Origin: a virus | Virus record (IMG/VR): IMGVR_UViG_3300030000_000661 | Coordinates: 1-33,979 of that record | Length of the DNA stretch: 33,979 nt | Reading direction: 5' to 3' (one strand) | Shown: positions 19,100 through 30,694 of the stretch, piece by piece | Layout: each line of letters opens with the position of its first letter | Numbering within the stretch: position 1 is the first letter of the stretch | Translations under genes and position numbers: made by a program | The notes under the pieces: model-generated | The model's input: only the letters and a program-made list of their open reading frames with translations | Told to the model about the DNA's origin: nothing | The model's database searches: none

Positions 19100-19296
19100 C
19101 AGCGCAGGAAATGCTCGAAAAGTACCTGCAAGCCGAAGCGGACGTGCTGGCCGGCAAGGACGTTCAGTTCAATGGCCGTCGTGTTGTCATGGCGGACCTG
19201 CCGGCCATCATCGCAGGCCGAAAAGAGTGGGAGCGCCGAGTAGCTCAATCGCAAAAAGGAGGACGCCCGGGCTACTCCCTGGCGTCGTTTGAATGA
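19090..19296 (+). CDS. Head-completion protein, lambda gpW family
   Basis: 68 residues, overlapping the terminase end by 10 bases and the portal start by four. TAQEMLEKYLQAEADVLAGK, then VQFNGRRVVMADL, match the gpW family, which seals the portal after packaging and makes the platform for tail joining. The order terL, gpW, portal is that of lambda. Retained although no capsid gene follows. Confidence 0.85.
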   Translation: MAVTAQEMLEKYLQAEADVLAGKDVQFNGRRVVMADLPAIIAGRKEWERRVAQSQKGGRPGYSLASFE

Positions 19297-20828
19297 ACCT
19301 GCTGGACAAAGTCCTAGCGCCGCTATTTCCGGGCATGGTGGCCGAGCGGCTGCGTGCGCGTAACGTGATCATGGCGTTTGAAGCCGCCTCTGTGACGCGC
19401 ACGCACAAGGCCAAGAAGCAAACCAAGAGCGCTGATGCGTCGCTGAACAAAACGCTGAAATCATTGCGTGAGCAGTGCCGCAAACTGGACGAAGACCACG
19501 ACATTGTTACGGGGCTTTTTGATCGCCTGGAAGAGCGGGTGGTGGGTGGTCCGGGTATCGCGGTGGAGCCGATTCCGCTGGGTTACGACGGCACGATTCA
19601 CGGGGCGTTTGCGGCCTCGGTCAAGGCTCTGTGGGGTGAATGGTCGCTTAAGCCGGAGACATCCGGTGAGTTGACCCGGCCGCAAATGGAACGGCTCATG
19701 TGCCGCACTTGGCTGCGTGATGGCGAGGGGTTGGCGCAAATGCTTATGGGCAAAGTGCCCGGCTACGAACACTTGCACGGCGTGCCGTTTGCGCTGGAGC
19801 TGCTGGAGCCGGATTACCTGCCCATCGACTACACCGACCTGTCCAAGGGCATCGTCCAAGGGGTGGAGCGCAACGCGTGGCGCCGGAAGCGGGCTTATCA
19901 CCTGTTTAAAGGGCATCCAGGGGATCAGCTCGGCATCTTTGCGCAAAACACCAAGCGTGTGCCGGCCGAGCAGATGATTCACATTGCGCATCGAAAACGC
20001 ATTGGCCAGAACCGTGGCCAGCCGCTGCTGCACGCGGTGTTGATCCGATTGGCGGATATCAAGGATTACGAGGAAAGCGAGCGGGTCGCGGCGCGGATCA
20101 GTGCGGCGCTGGCGATGTACATTAAGAAAGGCACCGGTGAGGACTTTGTGCCTGCTGGCAATGGTGAGAATCGGCCTGAGCGTACATTTCCAATCGCGCC
20201 GGGCATCGTGATCGACACGCTGCTGCCCGGTGAAGACGTCGGGATGATCGAGAGCAACCGCCCAAACCCCTTCCTTGAAGGCTTCCGCAATGGCCAGCTC
20301 AAGGCCGTCGCGGCGGGTACACGCGGCACGTACTCCAGTGTGGCGCGCAGCTATGACGGAACCTATTCGGCGCAGCGTCAGGAGCTGGTCGAGGGGCAGT
20401 TGGGCTACGACCTGCTGCAACACGAATTCATCGACTACTGGTGCCGGCCGGTTTATCGCAAATGGCTCGAAATGGCGATTCTAAGCGGCCAACTGGTTGT
20501 TCCCGCCGATGTCGATCCGCGCACGATTTACGGCGCGTTTTATCAAGGTCCGGTGATGCCCTGGATCAATCCGGTGCATGAGGCCACGGCTTGGAAGCTT
20601 CTGGTTGAGGCCGGCTTTGCAGACGAGGCAGAGGTGGCCCGGTCGCGGCAGCGCAACCCTTCAGAACTCAAGGCGTCGCGCAAGGCGGAAGTCGCCGCGA
20701 ACCGCGAGAGCGGGCTGGTTTTCAGCTCGGACTATTACCACCAAATCTACGGGAAGAATCAGCCCAATGATGACGAAAAACAACGGGCCGCTGATGCGGC
20801 CGCGGGCGTCGATAAGCCCGACGAATAA
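19293..20828 (+). CDS. Portal protein, lambda family
   Basis: 511 residues, normal length for lambda-type portals. Typical segments are present: ALELLEPDYLPIDYTDL, HIAHRKRIGQNRGQPLLHAV (~230-249) and GTYSSVARSYDGTYSAQRQE (~352-371), followed by a C-terminal DDEKQRAADAAAG. Portals form the dodecameric ring through which DNA enters the head and onto which the tail attaches. Nothing suggests decay. In relatives it is followed by a ClpP-like prohead protease, whose first ~70 codons follow here and overlap the portal end. Confidence 0.93.
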   Translation: MNLLDKVLAPLFPGMVAERLRARNVIMAFEAASVTRTHKAKKQTKSADASLNKTLKSLREQCRKLDEDHDIVTGLFDRLEERVVGGPGIAVEPIPLGYDGTIHGAFAASVKALWGEWSLKPETSGELTRPQMERLMCRTWLRDGEGLAQMLMGKVPGYEHLHGVPFALELLEPDYLPIDYTDLSKGIVQGVERNAWRRKRAYHLFKGHPGDQLGIFAQNTKRVPAEQMIHIAHRKRIGQNRGQPLLHAVLIRLADIKDYEESERVAARISAALAMYIKKGTGEDFVPAGNGENRPERTFPIAPGIVIDTLLPGEDVGMIESNRPNPFLEGFRNGQLKAVAAGTRGTYSSVARSYDGTYSAQRQELVEGQLGYDLLQHEFIDYWCRPVYRKWLEMAILSGQLVVPADVDPRTIYGAFYQGPVMPWINPVHEATAWKLLVEAGFADEAEVARSRQRNPSELKASRKAEVAANRESGLVFSSDYYHQIYGKNQPNDDEKQRAADAAAGVDKPDE

Positions 20829-21468
20829 GCCTGAGGAAAGCTGGTATTCCATTCGTGCTGCGTCGCGGGGTGTGGCTGAAGTCATGCTCTATGACGATAT
20901 CGGCGCCTGGGGAATCTCGGCTCGCCAGTTCGCTCGCGATCTGGCGGCGCTCGGTGACGTCTCACAGATCAACCTATCAGACGGCGCCGGCTGGACCAGC
21001 GCCTGGGTGCGCTGGCACAGCCAGGCCGCCGGCAAGGCCCGCCACTGGCGAGCGCCCAGCCTGGGCGAGCAGGGCGCGTTGATCAGCCCCAGTGGAGAGC
21101 CGGCGCAGGGTACGTTTGTCGCTGGCCTGTACGGCAACGCCGGCCCCCAGCCGGATAACCGCGACCACGTCGAGGTCTGGCGCTTTGATGATGGCGGCTC
21201 GCTGGTCTACGACTGGCAGGCCAAGAGCTACACCATCAGCCTGCCCAGCGGCACGGTGAGCATTCAGGTCGGCGGCAGTTTGGCGGTGGTGACGGACAGC
21301 GCCATCACTGGCAAGGCCGACACCATCACCCTGACCGGGAAAATCACCCTCAATGGCGACGTGCAAATCAACGGTGCCAGCCTGCAGCACAACGGCGTAA
21401 ACGTGGGATCGACCCATACCCATATGGGCGTGATGCCAGGCCCTGGGTCAACCGGCGCGCCGCACTAA
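20767..21468 (+). CDS. Deletion fusion: N-terminus of prohead protease joined to baseplate spike V
   Basis: 233 residues. Residues 1-70 (ESWYSIRAAS..., DDIGAWGISARQFARDLAAL, GDVSQINL) are the start of a ClpP-like prohead protease, which should continue LRINSPGGDV with the oxyanion-hole glycines. Instead, at residue 71 (base ~20977) the sequence becomes P2 gpV: DGAGWTSAWVRWHSQAAGKA, PSLGEQ, PSGEP, LYGNA, a beta-helix stalk (DTITLTGKITLNGDVQINGA) and the iron-binding spike tip GSTHTHMGV. P2 gpV has ~35 further residues at its N-terminus, lost here. The protease has no catalytic Ser or His. The frame is open across the joint, so a hybrid spike may be made; whether the OB-fold closes without its first strand is doubtful. 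Uses the protease start, overlapping portal by 62 bases. Confidence 0.85.
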   Translation: MMTKNNGPLMRPRASISPTNKPEESWYSIRAASRGVAEVMLYDDIGAWGISARQFARDLAALGDVSQINLSDGAGWTSAWVRWHSQAAGKARHWRAPSLGEQGALISPSGEPAQGTFVAGLYGNAGPQPDNRDHVEVWRFDDGGSLVYDWQAKSYTISLPSGTVSIQVGGSLAVVTDSAITGKADTITLTGKITLNGDVQINGASLQHNGVNVGSTHTHMGVMPGPGSTGAPH

Positions 21469-25999: not shown

Positions 26000-27166
26000 A
26001 TGAGCGGTTTCTTTCACGGCGTTACTGTCACGAATGTGGACACCGGCGCGCGCATCATTGCGTTGCCGACGTCCTCGATCATCGGCCTGGTGGATACCTT
26101 CACCGAGGCCCCGGCCTTCACGGCCAAGGCCAACGACCTGGTGCTGATCACCAACGAGCGCGAAGCCATTGCGGCCTGGGGTCCGGACGCGGCCATCACC
26201 AAGGCCTGCCAAGCCATTTACCTGCGCGCCAAGGCGGTGATCGTGGCGTGCGGCGTGGCCAAGGTGGCGGATGCGGCGCAGCAGACCTCGGCCATCATCG
26301 GCGGCGTGCTGGCCAGCGGTAAGCGTACCGGCCTGCAGGCGCTGCTCGATGGCAAGAGTCGCTTCAACGCTCAGCCGCGCTTGCTGGTGACGCCCAAGCA
26401 CAGCTCGACCCTGCCGGTCGGTATGGCCCTGGTCGCCCTGGCGGACAAGCTGCGTGGCCTGGCCATCCTCGACGGCCCCAACACCACCGACGAGGCGGTG
26501 ATGGAGTACGCCAAGAACTTCGGCGCCAAGCGCGCCTTTATGGTCGACCCAGGGATTCAGTACTGGGACACCGTGGCCAGCGCGACCCTCGACACATCGG
26601 CCTCGGCCTGGGTCGCCGGCCTGTTTGCCTGGACCGACAACGAGTACGGATTCTGGGCCTCGCCGTCGAACAAGGATTTCGTCGGCGTCACCGGTACCAC
26701 GCGCGCCATTGAGTTTCTGGACGGTGACGAGACCTGCCGGGCCAACCTGCTCAACAACGCCAATATCACCACGATCATTCGTGACTCGGGCTTTCGCCTG
26801 TGGGGCAACCGCACGTTGGCGAGCGATCCAAAGTGGGCGTTTGTCACCCGGGTGCGAACCATGGACATCGTCATGGACGCGATCCTCTTCGGCCACAAGT
26901 GGGCGGTCGACCGCTCGATCACGGCGACCTATGTCAAGGACGTCACCGAAGGCCTACAGGCGTTCATGCGCGACCTGAGGAACCAGGGCGCGATCATCAA
27001 TTTCGAGGTGTATGCCGACACCGAGCTCAACACGGCCAGCCAGCTGGAGCAGGGCAAGGTGTACTGGAACATCCGTTTTACCGATGTACCGCCGGCCGAA
27101 AACCCCAATTTCCGGGTCGAGGTCACCAACCAGTGGTTGACCGAAGTCCTCGACCAAGCCGCTTAA
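26000..27166 (+). CDS. FI: Tail sheath protein FI
   Basis: 388 residues, like P2 FI (396). Begins SGFFHGVTVTNVDTGARII. Characteristic strings: SIIGLVDTF, FVGVTGTTRAIEF, then NANITTIIRDSGFRLWGNRT (~250-270) and RTMDIVMDAI. It forms the contractile outer sheath. It is first of the FI-FII-E-T-U-X-D block. No truncation. Confidence 0.95.
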   Translation: MSGFFHGVTVTNVDTGARIIALPTSSIIGLVDTFTEAPAFTAKANDLVLITNEREAIAAWGPDAAITKACQAIYLRAKAVIVACGVAKVADAAQQTSAIIGGVLASGKRTGLQALLDGKSRFNAQPRLLVTPKHSSTLPVGMALVALADKLRGLAILDGPNTTDEAVMEYAKNFGAKRAFMVDPGIQYWDTVASATLDTSASAWVAGLFAWTDNEYGFWASPSNKDFVGVTGTTRAIEFLDGDETCRANLLNNANITTIIRDSGFRLWGNRTLASDPKWAFVTRVRTMDIVMDAILFGHKWAVDRSITATYVKDVTEGLQAFMRDLRNQGAIINFEVYADTELNTASQLEQGKVYWNIRFTDVPPAENPNFRVEVTNQWLTEVLDQAA

Positions 27167-27178
27167 GGAGCCGCAGCA

Positions 27179-27688
27179 ATGGCAATGATTCCCGAAACCC
27201 TGGCGAACATGAACCTGTTCGCCGATGGCGTCAGCTTCCAAGGCGACGTGCCCAGCCTGACCCTGCCCAAGCTCACGCTCAAGACCGAGGAGCACCGCGC
27301 CGGCGGCATGGACGTGCCGGTGGAGCTGGACATGGGCATGGAAAAACAAGAGGCCGGGTTTACCACCACGGGCGTGCGCCGCGAGTCGCTCAAGTTCTTC
27401 GGCCTGGCTGACGGCACCTCGTTCAACGGTGTGTTCCGTGGAGCCTTCAAGGGCCTCAAGGGCAAGGTCACCCCGGTGATTGTGACCCTGCGCGGGCTGC
27501 TCAAAGAGATCGACATGGGCGACTGGAAGGCCGGCGACAAGGCCGAGATCAAGCACAACGTGGCCTTGACCTACTACAAGCTCGAGGTCGACGGACGCCT
27601 GATCTATGAAATCGATGCGCTGGGTATGAAGCGTGTCATCAACGGCGTGGACCAACTCGCCGCCCAACGTTCGGCCCTGGGCCTTTAA
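27179..27688 (+). CDS. FII: Tail tube protein FII
   Basis: 169 residues (P2 FII is 172). MIPETLANMNLFADGVSFQG at the start, KTEEHRAGGMDVPVELDMGM in the middle (~38-57) and a C-terminal YKLEVDGRLIYEIDALG match the family. It polymerises into the inner tube driven through the target membrane on contraction. Twelve bases after FI, with AAGGAG. Confidence 0.95.
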   Translation: MAMIPETLANMNLFADGVSFQGDVPSLTLPKLTLKTEEHRAGGMDVPVELDMGMEKQEAGFTTTGVRRESLKFFGLADGTSFNGVFRGAFKGLKGKVTPVIVTLRGLLKEIDMGDWKAGDKAEIKHNVALTYYKLEVDGRLIYEIDALGMKRVINGVDQLAAQRSALGL

Positions 27689-27700
27689 GGAAATCCCCTC

Positions 27701-28003
27701 ATGTCTCAAGTCAAAAAGACCCCGGCCTGGATGGTCCTCAGCGCTGAGAGCGTCGTGGTGAGTCTCACCAAACCGGTGCAAATGAACAGCGTCACCTGCG
27801 ACAAAGTCACCTTGCGCGCCCCAACCGTGCGCGATGTGCGCGCGGCCAATACCGGCGCCTGCGGCGATGACGAGCAGCGTGAGCTGCTGCTGTTTGCCAG
27901 CCTGGCCGAGGTTGGTGCCAAGGACCTGGAGGGCATGACCCTCAAGGACTACCAGCGCCTGCAGGCCGGTTATTTTCGCCTGGTGCAAGACGACGAACTT
28001 TGA
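27701..28003 (+). CDS. E: Tail assembly chaperone E
   Basis: 100 residues ending ...VQDDEL at CTT TGA. A small protein between tube and tape-measure genes, as P2 E; VTLRAPTVRDVRAAN and a C-terminal DYQRLQAGYFRLV fit. These chaperones coat the tape measure. In most contractile and lambda-type tails a fraction of ribosomes shift frame near the end to make a longer form, and a second frame is open here. Confidence 0.85.
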   Translation: MSQVKKTPAWMVLSAESVVVSLTKPVQMNSVTCDKVTLRAPTVRDVRAANTGACGDDEQRELLLFASLAEVGAKDLEGMTLKDYQRLQAGYFRLVQDDEL

Positions 28004-28115
28004 CCCGGTGGTGATGAAGATGGCGGCAAAGCGGCTTGCGAGCGAGCTGCACTTTTCCGCCGAGGAAATCATGACCATGCGCTTTTGCGACATGGTCTGG
28101 TGGCTCACGGACTGA
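27701..28115 (+). CDS. E-E' frameshift product (+1 at CTT TGA C)
   Basis: After Leu100 (CTT, 27998-28000) the zero frame stops at TGA. One base forward, the frame continues GAC CCG GTG and encodes 37 residues (DPVVMKMAAKRLASELHFSA...WWLTD) to TGA at 28115, giving a 137-residue protein. CTT TGA C is the shift site of bacterial prfB. The extension has the size, helical composition and MAAK...FSAEEI pattern of GpE-type extensions. No strong SD-like stimulator was seen upstream. A separate start at ATG 28014 is the alternative. Confidence 0.6.
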
Positions 28116-28144: not shown

Positions 28145-30694
28145 ATGGCGAGCAAACTGGCATTAGGGTTGGTGATCGGCGGCGCCGTCAGTTCGACGGT
28201 AGGCGCTGCCTTCAAGACGGTTGAAAACCGGATCAAGAAGCTGGAAGAAACAGGCAACCGGGCCAAGGTGCTGAAAAACACCATCGGCGAAACCATGCGC
28301 CTGCGTGATGAATGGAAGAAGGCCTACGAGACCGGCTCCGCCTCGGCGTCCGGTCTGCTGCGTAAGCTCGAGGGCAATCTGGATTGCCTGCGCAAGCAGG
28401 GGGTGCAGGTCCACAAACTGCGCCAGGAATACCAGGCACTCGGACGGGTCGCCAAAGGTGCAGATCTGCAGCTTAAGGGGCATGAGCAAATCCGCCAGGG
28501 CAAGGACAGCCTCAAGTCAGGGATCGGCCAGGCAGTGGCCGGTGTGGGGGCAGTAGCGATTCCGACCAAGATCAGTGCTGACTATCAGGCGATCATCCGT
28601 GACATCGCGATCAAGGCGGACGTGGCCAACAAGCCGCAAGAAGCCCAGATGACCCGCACCATCATTCAGACCTCGCAAGACACTGGGATGGGCCGCAACG
28701 ATGTAGCCGACCTGGTGAATCAGTTGGTCGGTGCCGGCATGGAGCTGGACAAGGCGCTGTCCTACGCACCAGTGGCGGCCAAGTTCGCCATTGGGCAGGG
28801 CGCAACCGGGGTCGACACCGCGAACATGATCCAGGCGCTGCAGCAGAACGCCAAGATCAGTGACCCCAAAGTCATGGAGAAAGCCCTGGAGGCTATCGCC
28901 CTGCAGGGCCAGGCGGGCAGCTTTGAGGCGGCCGACATGGCGCGCTGGTTTCCGCAGATGCTGGCCGGCATGGAGAAGATCGGCATCACTGGGCTGGACT
29001 CGGTGAGCCAACTGGGCTCGATGCTCCAGGTGCAGATGAAGACTGCCGGCGGGTCCGATGAGGCGGCCAACAACCTCAAGAACTGGATGGAGAAAATCGG
29101 CTCCGGAGACGTGGTGAAGTCCTACAAGGAGGCGGGCATTGATTACCAAGCCTCGCTGAACACCGGTATTCAGGGGGGCATGTCGACCCTGGAGTCCAGC
29201 TTTGCGCTGGCCCAGCGCTACGTCGAAGCCACCAACCCGGAGCAGGCCAAGAAGATGGCCGAAGCGACGGCCAAGATCAGCAAGGAGACAGATCCCGCCA
29301 AGGCCAAGGCCATGCTGGAGTCCCTGGAGAAGGCCCTGCGCACCGGTGACATTTTTGCCGACATGCAGGTCAAGGCTGCACTCACTGCCTTCTCTCAGAA
29401 CAAGGCGCTGTATGAGCAGCTGAAAGCCGAATCGAAGAACGCCACCGGCATCCTCGACAAGAACCTGGCCGAGCGGCGCGAGTCGTCATCGCAGATGTGG
29501 GCCGAGACGGCGAATGCCTTGAACGACAGCATGCGCGCCGTGGGTGATGCCTTGCGGCCGGTGACGGACTCCGTAGCCCAGGGCATCACCGTGGTGGCCA
29601 AGTCGCTGACCGGTCTCACAGAGAAGGCGCCGCCGTTGGTGCTGGGCCTGACCGCCCTGGGCGCCGGGCTGATCGCGCTGAAAAACGTGGTGGCCGCGTT
29701 CAAGATCGGCAAGGGCCTTCTCAACGTGGCCCGGGGCTCGATGATGGGCAACCCGAACGTGATTCAGCGGGTGTTTGTAACCAACGCTGCCGGCATGGGC
29801 GGCGGTGATTACGGCGCCGATGGCGGCAAGGACAAGAAGGGCCGCAAGGGCGGCCGCACTGGGCGGGGTGGTCGCGGCCTGCGCGGTGGCATTAGCGGCA
29901 TCGGCCAGGCGCTGAAAAGCGTCATCACCGGTGGCGGGGTGGGTGGTGCAGTCAAAGGCGCGGCGTCGGCCGGGATTGGCAGTGCGGCGCTTAAGGGCAT
30001 CGGCTCGATGGCCAAGGGCGCTGCACCGTTGATCAAGGGCGGCGCCGTGTTGTCGGTGCTGGGTGCCGGCATCCAGGTGGCGGACACCTACCAGAACGCC
30101 ACCACTCGGGATGAAAAAGCTGAGGGCTATGGCGAGGCGGCGGGGAACCTGGCCGGCGCTGCAGCGGGGGCGGCAGCAGGTGCTGCAATCGGTTCGGTGG
30201 TGCCGGTGATCGGCACGGTGATTGGCGGCCTAATCGGCGGCGCTCTGGGCGCCTGGGGCGGATCTGCTGCAGGCGGTGTCCTGAGCAAAAAAATGTTCGG
30301 CAGCGATGAGGCGCTTAAGTCGATGCCGGCTGCTGGGCCGCTGATGATGACCAACGCCGGCAAGGACATCCCGCCCGTCCTGGGCGACATCGCCAAATCA
30401 TTCAAGACCGGCCAGACCGATCCGGCGATGGGGCAGGTGGTGCGGTCGATGGCCCTGGCGTCGCCCACTGTGGCAGCGCCGCCGATGATCAAGGCACCGG
30501 AGCCACCCAAGCCCGCGCCGCCCAAGGTTGAGCAGCAGCTTACCTTCGCACCGCATATGCCCATCGTGGTGCATGGCGATGTGAAAGACCCTGCGCAATT
30601 GGCGCGGGAGATTGAGCCGCAACTGCGCCGGATGTTCGACGAGTTCAACCGCCAGGCGGCGGCCCGTCAGCTGTCCGACGCACCACATCTTTAA
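28145..30694 (+). CDS. T: Tape measure protein T
   Basis: 849 residues, close to P2 gpT (815). Starts ASKLALGLVIGGAVSSTVGA. Residues ~20-120 form a coiled coil, the middle is helical (MELDKALSYAPVAAKFAIGQ; MARWFPQMLAGMEKIGI), and there are hydrophobic segments at ~495-520 (PLVLGLTALGAGLIALKNVV) and ~665-715 (Gly/Ala-rich). The C-terminus is Pro-rich, ending VHGDVKDPAQLAREIEPQL. Sets tail length and probably enters the target envelope. Intact. Confidence 0.95.
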   Translation: MASKLALGLVIGGAVSSTVGAAFKTVENRIKKLEETGNRAKVLKNTIGETMRLRDEWKKAYETGSASASGLLRKLEGNLDCLRKQGVQVHKLRQEYQALGRVAKGADLQLKGHEQIRQGKDSLKSGIGQAVAGVGAVAIPTKISADYQAIIRDIAIKADVANKPQEAQMTRTIIQTSQDTGMGRNDVADLVNQLVGAGMELDKALSYAPVAAKFAIGQGATGVDTANMIQALQQNAKISDPKVMEKALEAIALQGQAGSFEAADMARWFPQMLAGMEKIGITGLDSVSQLGSMLQVQMKTAGGSDEAANNLKNWMEKIGSGDVVKSYKEAGIDYQASLNTGIQGGMSTLESSFALAQRYVEATNPEQAKKMAEATAKISKETDPAKAKAMLESLEKALRTGDIFADMQVKAALTAFSQNKALYEQLKAESKNATGILDKNLAERRESSSQMWAETANALNDSMRAVGDALRPVTDSVAQGITVVAKSLTGLTEKAPPLVLGLTALGAGLIALKNVVAAFKIGKGLLNVARGSMMGNPNVIQRVFVTNAAGMGGGDYGADGGKDKKGRKGGRTGRGGRGLRGGISGIGQALKSVITGGGVGGAVKGAASAGIGSAALKGIGSMAKGAAPLIKGGAVLSVLGAGIQVADTYQNATTRDEKAEGYGEAAGNLAGAAAGAAAGAAIGSVVPVIGTVIGGLIGGALGAWGGSAAGGVLSKKMFGSDEALKSMPAAGPLMMTNAGKDIPPVLGDIAKSFKTGQTDPAMGQVVRSMALASPTVAAPPMIKAPEPPKPAPPKVEQQLTFAPHMPIVVHGDVKDPAQLAREIEPQLRRMFDEFNRQAAARQLSDAPHL

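What the first reader, a model, noticed from the sequence alone, without database searches (positions are those of the whole stretch)
27985..28115. +1 frameshift at CTT TGA C joining tail chaperones E and E'
E ends with CTT TGA C, the exact heptamer of the prfB frameshift, and the +1 frame runs 37 codons that look like a GpE extension. P2-type and lambda-type phages use -1 shifts and Mu -2, so a stop-codon-based +1 site would be an unusual solution, possibly responsive to release-factor 2 level.
Basis: partly seen in the sequence, partly recalled or inferred. Interest (0 to 1): 0.7.

Follow-up and report, generated by a model that had tools for sequence, protein, structure and literature searches.

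The report
+1 frameshift in phage tail chaperone
This prophage almost certainly makes a second, longer version of a tail-building helper protein by letting some ribosomes skip one base, but comparison with hundreds of relatives shows that the skip most likely happens at a conserved "TTT C" 24 bases before the stop codon, and not at the release-factor-2-like CTTTGAC sequence that drew attention to it.

Summary
The E/E' +1 join is real and deeply conserved; the site proposed for it is most likely wrong. E (27701-28003) is a Phage_TAC_7 tail chaperone between tube and tape-measure genes. It ends CTT_TGA_C, and the +1 frame runs on into an E' domain homologous to the -1-frame E' of other phages. 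CTT_TGA_C is not conserved: it occurs in 59 of 195 distinct relatives with a +1 E'. Others have GTT, ATT, GTG or CTG before TGA, TAA or TAG, and many have no stop there (R-pyocin-type clusters, a Burkholderia-like genus). TTT_C is shared by all 195, TTT_CGN by 194; here TAT_TTT_CGC at 27971-27979. On a tree of 167 sequences the TTT third base never changes, while third bases upstream change 25.6 times on average; the supposed slip codon CTT changes at its first base 19 times. In the Burkholderia-like group the substitution pattern switches from frame 0 to frame +1 at TCN_TTT_CGA, with no stop nearby. Best model: P-site tRNA-Phe slips from UUU to UUC, giving a 137-aa E-E' protein. UUU_Y is known to be +1-prone in bacteria, and UUU_CGN is the +1 motif of influenza PA-X and plant amalgaviruses; I found no report of it in phage tail chaperones. 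Nothing was measured.

The parts
27701..28003 (+). gene E, tail assembly chaperone (zero-frame product, 100 aa, PF10109 Phage_TAC_7)
   Evidence: ORF; Pfam E 1.9e-21 over cut-off; close relatives
27971..27979 (+). proposed +1 frameshift motif TAT_TTT_CGC (E-, P-, A-site codons)
   Evidence: TTT_C in 195/195 and TTT_CGN in 194/195 distinct relatives with +1 E'; zero parsimony changes in the TTT codon among 167 sequences
27974..27977 (+). shift tetranucleotide TTT_C: tRNA-Phe re-pairs from UUU (27974-27976) to UUC (27975-27977)
   Evidence: protein-anchored codon count 161 TTT to 1 TTC, the exception lacking E'; mechanism inferred
27978..28115 (+). E' domain in the +1 frame as read after the slip (45 aa plus stop TGA)
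   Evidence: read-through with TTTC=F gives one open 137-aa fusion; E' homologous to -1-frame E' of other phages
27998..28004 (+). CTTTGAC heptamer named in the finding; includes E's stop codon
   Evidence: present; not conserved: 59/195 relatives; first base of the CTT codon changes 19 times on the tree
27701..28115 (+). predicted E-E' fusion protein, 137 aa
28145..30694 (+). tape measure protein, presumed client of E and E-E'
   Evidence: phrog_794 tail length tape measure E 1.3e-193; PhageMin_Tail
27179..27688 (+). tail tube protein FII, upstream neighbour
   Evidence: PF04985 E 5.3e-59
26000..27166 (+). tail sheath protein, upstream neighbour
   Evidence: PF04984 and PF17482

Best explanation
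E and E-E' are the paired tail assembly chaperones of a contractile-tailed, P2-like prophage. Most ribosomes read E to its stop at 28001 and make the 100-aa E. A minority slip +1 when the Phe codon UUU (27974-27976) is in the P site and CGC in the A site: tRNA-Phe, which reads UUU and UUC, moves forward one base to UUC. Translation then continues in the +1 frame (GCC UGG UGC...) to 28115 and makes a 137-aa E-E'. By analogy with lambda gpG/gpGT and P2 E/E+E', E binds the tape measure protein and the E' domain recruits tube subunits. Shown by sequence evolution: the +1 fusion, the invariance of UUU_C, the frame switch at that codon, and the non-conservation of CUU_UGA_C. Inferred: that the slip happens in vivo, its efficiency, the tRNA mechanism, and the function in tail assembly.
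For: (1) TTT_C is in the E/E' overlap of 195/195 and TTT_CGN of 194/195 distinct relatives with a +1 E'; CTT_TGA_C 59, CTT_TGA 94, any NTT_stop 140. (2) With the site anchored on protein (Y-F-R), the Phe codon is TTT in 161 of 162; the one TTC (L187) has lost E'. Other Phe codons in these genes: 126 TTC, 83 TTT. In the Burkholderia-like group the site is 26/26 TTT against 45 TTC and 5 TTT elsewhere. Among 47 clusters under 80% identity: 47/47 TTT against 15 TTT and 45 TTC elsewhere, Fisher p 2e-17; that script used TTTC as its anchor, so the protein-anchored count is the fairer one. (3) Parsimony on 167 Pseudomonas-group sequences: TTT [0,0,0] changes; third positions of the 60 codons upstream average 25.6, minimum 6; third positions of the next three codons are suppressed (11, 1, 4), as dual coding predicts; CTT [19,4,7], stop [7,12,5]. 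(4) In the Burkholderia-like group the variable position moves from frame-0 third to +1 third directly after TCN_TTT_CGA, and the E stop lies 57 or more nt downstream. (5) L173: TTT_C is kept although it sits one codon later. (6) 0 of 18 relatives with a -1 E' have TTT_CGN. [quoted passage not shown] UUU_CGN is the +1 motif in influenza PA-X (PMC3498833) and plant amalgaviruses (PMC5052127).
Against: No expression or mass-spectrometry data. CGC is a common Arg codon in these genes, so A-site slowness is not an obvious driver. No downstream RNA structure stands out (mean z about 0 to -0.6; window z 0.82) and no conserved upstream SD-like element is seen, so the source of efficiency is unexplained. 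In the Pseudomonas group codons 4-7 after TTT still vary mostly at frame-0 third positions, so +1 constraint between TTT and TGA is clear only for codons 1-3. Sequences are related, so counts are not independent.
Confidence: 0.86

Rival explanations
1. prfB-like +1 shift at CUU_UGA_C: the ribosome pauses at UGA, tRNA-Leu slips from CUU to UUU, and output follows release factor 2 level.
For: The exact heptamer is present. CUU_U is the most efficient +1 shift site next to a stop codon in E. coli (PMC5009743), so some slippage there is plausible.
Against: Heptamer in 59/195 relatives; P-site base C changed 19 times on the tree; stops include TAA and TAG; many members have no stop there. No SD-like element 3 nt upstream, which prfB sites have almost universally. 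Does not explain the invariant TTT.
Confidence: 0.04
2. Two-site model: UUU_C is the main site, and ribosomes that miss it get a second chance at CUU_UGA_C in the subclade that has it, giving two fusion products that differ in the linker.
For: Both motifs are present in the window clade; both lead into the same +1 E' frame.
Against: No sign of selection for C in the NTT codon: C and G are both common there. The upstream stimulator of prfB is absent.
Confidence: 0.08
3. A -2 shift (as in Mu) around TAT_TTT_CGC, which reaches the same frame with one extra residue (YFFAWCK).
For: Mu uses -2 in the analogous genes (PMC5009743); -2 and +1 reach the same frame.
Against: After -2, tRNA-Phe would face AUU or ACU; the bases at that position vary (TAT/TAC/TCC/ACC). 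UUU to UUC at +1 is a cognate re-pairing.
Confidence: 0.02
4. No frameshift: E' is translated independently from its own start (GTG/ATG at 28008-28019) or is a decayed gene remnant.
For: The window has GTG GTG ATG AAG ATG in the +1 frame just after the stop.
Against: Starts are not conserved (L047 DPARQK, L012 DAATQK). E' is under purifying selection and homologous to frameshifted E' in other phages. Does not explain the invariant TTT.
Confidence: 0.01

Closest known systems
P2 E/E+E' and lambda G/GT tail assembly chaperone frameshifts
   Same: Same gene position between tube and tape measure, two products sharing an N-terminus; E is PF10109; E' is homologous to the -1-frame E' of Mica, FoX1 and Jilinvirus phages
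   Different: Direction +1 instead of -1 and UUU_CGN instead of TTTTTTG-type heptamers; 0 of 18 relatives with -1 have UUU_CGN
UUU_CGN class of +1 frameshift sites (influenza A PA-X UCC_UUU_CGU; plant amalgaviruses)
   Same: Same P- and A-site codons; the Burkholderia-like members even have UCC_UUU_CGA; no stop codon or RNA structure needed
   Different: Bacterial ribosomes and dsDNA phage/tailocin genes; CGC is not rare there; efficiency unknown
Bacterial UUU_Y +1 sites (Yersinia YopN-TyeA, tentatively assigned)
   Same: tRNA-Phe slip UUU to UUY on bacterial ribosomes without an adjacent stop (PMC5009743)
   Different: There a single gene; here a conserved site across many prophages and tailocin clusters
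prfB +1 frameshift (CUU_UGA_C)
   Same: Identical heptamer in the window
   Different: No SD-like element, not conserved, stop can be TAA, TAG or absent
Stop-adjacent +1 sites in Gram-positive phages (SPP1 17.1 CCC_UAA, Listeria PSA CCC_UGA)
   Same: +1 shifts in phage tail genes
   Different: Tail tube proteins with added domains rather than chaperones; proline codons; stop-dependent

Membership tests
Frameshifted tail assembly chaperone pair (G/GT, E/E+E') | Lies between tail tube and tape measure genes | tested here: met
Frameshifted tail assembly chaperone pair (G/GT, E/E+E') | Zero-frame product belongs to a tail chaperone family | tested here: met
   PF10109 E 1.9e-21, over cut-off
Frameshifted tail assembly chaperone pair (G/GT, E/E+E') | Conserved overlapping extension in a second frame | tested here: met
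   195 distinct relatives with +1 E'; hhalign E 3e-10 to -1-frame E'
Frameshifted tail assembly chaperone pair (G/GT, E/E+E') | Two products at a fixed ratio, both needed for tails | not testable with these tools
   needs protein or genetic data
prfB-type shifty-stop +1 site | CUU_UGA_C in the gene | tested here: met
   27998-28004
prfB-type shifty-stop +1 site | AGGGGG-like element 3 nt upstream of CUU | tested here: not met
   sequence GACGACGAACTTTGAC against the definition in PMC12421855
prfB-type shifty-stop +1 site | Heptamer or RF2-read stop conserved among orthologues | tested here: not met
   59/195; TAG in L191; no stop in L054, L159, L162-L165, L168 and the Burkholderia-like group
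UUU_CGN +1 site class | In-frame UUU_CGN in the overlap, conserved at nucleotide level | tested here: met
   194/195; zero changes in TTT
UUU_CGN +1 site class | Frame transition located at UUU | tested here: met
   substitution pattern switches at the site in the Burkholderia-like group and is consistent in the Pseudomonas group
UUU_CGN +1 site class | Measured +1 shifting with a junction peptide | not testable with these tools
   predicted peptide LQAGYFAWCK

The most novel reading that the evidence does not exclude
UUU_CGN is a +1 frameshift signal used by both bacterial and eukaryotic viruses. A large family of contractile-tail chaperones in Pseudomonas and Burkholderia-like prophages, and in R-pyocin-type tailocin clusters, depends on it without a stop codon, SD-like element or RNA structure. 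The family switched between -1 and +1 shifting at least twice while keeping the E' domain.
Probability: 0.6. Interest if true: 0.7.

Novelty: new variant of a known kind. Interest (0 to 1): 0.57.

Why it matters
Tail chaperone frameshifts are a textbook case of ratio control. Here the same two-domain product is reached by a slip in the opposite direction, at a motif known mainly from influenza and plant viruses. Several independent lineages give a natural experiment on what a minimal +1 site needs on bacterial ribosomes, and the presence in R-pyocin-type clusters makes it testable in laboratory strains. It also corrects annotation: in the annotated +1-type records looked at here (OQ658366.1 and two Pseudomonas plasmids) E' is not annotated.

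Tried and rejected
CTT_TGA_C as the site: rejected as the main site because of non-conservation. Independent start for E': no conserved start codon. -2 slip: mismatched re-pairing and a variable preceding codon. Downstream RNA structure: none beyond shuffles. SD-like stimulator: none conserved in the per-codon profile. E' against Pfam, PHROGs and NCBIfam: no hit on its own; homology found only by profile comparison. A first classifier script used a faulty pattern and was redone (replaced). Two genome-search runs failed on the centre handle. Literature searches found +1 tail-assembly shifts only elsewhere (haloarchaeal HSTV-2 as very likely +1; SEA-PHAGES actinobacteriophage data include +1 shifts), and none at UUU_CGN in phages; most subscription papers are not in the library.

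Full report
What is there. The window is a P2-like contractile-tail prophage record: sheath 26000-27166, tube 27179-27688, E 27701-28003, tape measure 28145-30694, gpU, gpD. E is a 100-aa Phage_TAC_7 chaperone (PF10109, E 1.9e-21). It ends GAA CTT TGA C, and the +1 frame is open from 27939 to 28115.

Is the +1 join real? Yes, by conservation. All the relatives from the first two searches have the TGA and a +1 ORF, and all but one, L009, with its E' broken downstream, keep the full E' ending in an MVWWLTD-like motif. Wider searches of viral contigs and of about 1,200 genomes gave 215 distinct sequences: 195 with a +1 E', 18 with a -1 E' and 2 with neither. The +1 E' is homologous to the -1-frame E' of phages such as Mica, FoX1 and the Jilinviruses (hhalign probability 96.7%, E 3e-10) and to the E' of the Burkholderia-like group (99.1%, E 4.5e-19). 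No start codon for E' is conserved.

Where is the shift? The heptamer is not conserved. Junctions include GTT_TGA, ATT_TGA, CTT_TAA, GTT_TAA, GTT_TAG, GTG_TAA, TTG_TAA and CTG_TAA. In several lineages there is no stop there, and E runs on past the conserved start of E' (L054, L159, L162-L165, L167-L169, L174-L183, L185, L188, L207). In a Burkholderia-like genus (organism not named by the tool, so this label is a guess from genome size and group size; group of G1060) the E stop lies tens of bases downstream and overlaps E'. Of candidate +1 sites in the overlap, TTT_Y is in 195 of 195 and TTT_CGN in 194; the exception, L173, has TTT_CTG one codon later. CTT_TGA_C is in 59. Named public records agree: plasmids NZ_CP062157.2 and NZ_CP085886.1 have TAT_TTT_CGT and TAT_TTT_CGC with CTG_TAA and CTT_TAA ends.

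Why TTT_C is the slip and not just a conserved Phe. Anchored on protein sequence, the codon is TTT in 161 of 162; the single TTC belongs to L187, which has lost E'. Elsewhere in the same genes Phe is TTC more often than TTT (126 to 83; in the Burkholderia-like group 45 to 5). On a tree of 167 Pseudomonas-group sequences the TTT codon shows no change, while third positions of the 60 codons upstream average 25.6 changes (minimum 6). The next three codons have suppressed third positions (11, 1, 4), as expected if a second frame begins there. The NTT codon before the stop changes 19 times at its first base, and the stop itself is variable (the alignment was anchored on TTTCG, which excluded only L173). 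In the Burkholderia-like group the variable position switches from frame-0 third to +1 third immediately after TCN_TTT_CGA. CTTTGAC is thus explained as +1-frame Phe-Asp codons read out of register.

How it most likely works. tRNA-Phe reads both UUU and UUC, so a +1 slip from UUU onto UUC in the P site keeps cognate pairing; the next codon read is GCC. The 137-aa product was written out with TTTC read as one Phe. The E-site codon is UAU or UAC in most of the Pseudomonas group and UCN in the Burkholderia-like group. A UAU or UCU spacer codon helps at prfB (PMC13245932) and UCC helps in influenza (PMC3498833); whether this matters here is inference. I saw no RNA structure and no SD-like element. 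By analogy with lambda, where gpG and gpGT coat the tape measure and T recruits tube subunits (PMC5009743), E and E-E' should do the same; this is inference.

What is known. Bacterial ribosomes are especially prone to +1 shifting on UUU_Ynn (PMC5009743). UUU_CGN is the +1 motif of influenza PA-X and plant amalgaviruses. P2-type phages use -1 at TTTTTTG (PMC3091744), and relatives of E in Wolbachia WO, AcaML1 and others have GGTTTTTTG. +1 shifts in tail-assembly genes have been proposed (haloarchaeal HSTV-2). I found no report of UUU_CGN in a phage tail chaperone, with the caveat that many papers are not in the library. On a poorly resolved 82-column tree the label +1 or -1 needs at least two changes. 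It is therefore a member of the frameshifted chaperone kind, with a new variant of the shift.

Limits. Everything is comparative; no shift was measured. A minor contribution from CTT_TGA_C in this particular prophage cannot be excluded. The window record itself carries a deletion of head genes, so it may be a defective prophage or a misassembly, but the E/E' region is intact and shared with relatives.

Noticed in passing
window 20884-21465, junction near 20975: Head genes are missing: the lambda-type portal (19293-20828) is followed by an ORF that appears to fuse the start of a head protease to the later part of gpV (the protease part judged by eye). In relatives G1303 and G1297 the two sides lie about 3.2 kb apart, so this record has a roughly 3.2 kb deletion or an assembly collapse.
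   Followed up: partly
L186, L189, L190, L193, L194, L199, L203: In these Pseudomonas-family loci E is tandemly duplicated within one open frame of about 201-217 aa; the second copy carries the TTT_CGN site and E'.
   Followed up: no
L346 (OQ658366.1), 18475 bases: Deposited as 'Pseudomonas phage sp., complete genome', but it has tail, baseplate, fibre and holin genes and no annotated head genes: it looks like an R-type pyocin cluster. Its chaperone has TAC_TTT_CGC and no stop at the junction.
   Followed up: partly
L187 (reverse strand): A fused double-E gene that lacks a recognisable E' and has TTC instead of TTT at the site: a natural control.
   Followed up: partly
L331, L329, L330, L336 and L209: More divergent E genes with a different E'-like +1 extension also carry TTT_CG (for example ACC_TTT_CGC, CAG_TTT_CGG), suggesting the motif reaches beyond the two main groups.
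   Followed up: partly
L009: E' is broken downstream of the junction although TTT_CGC is kept; probably a recent decay.
   Followed up: no
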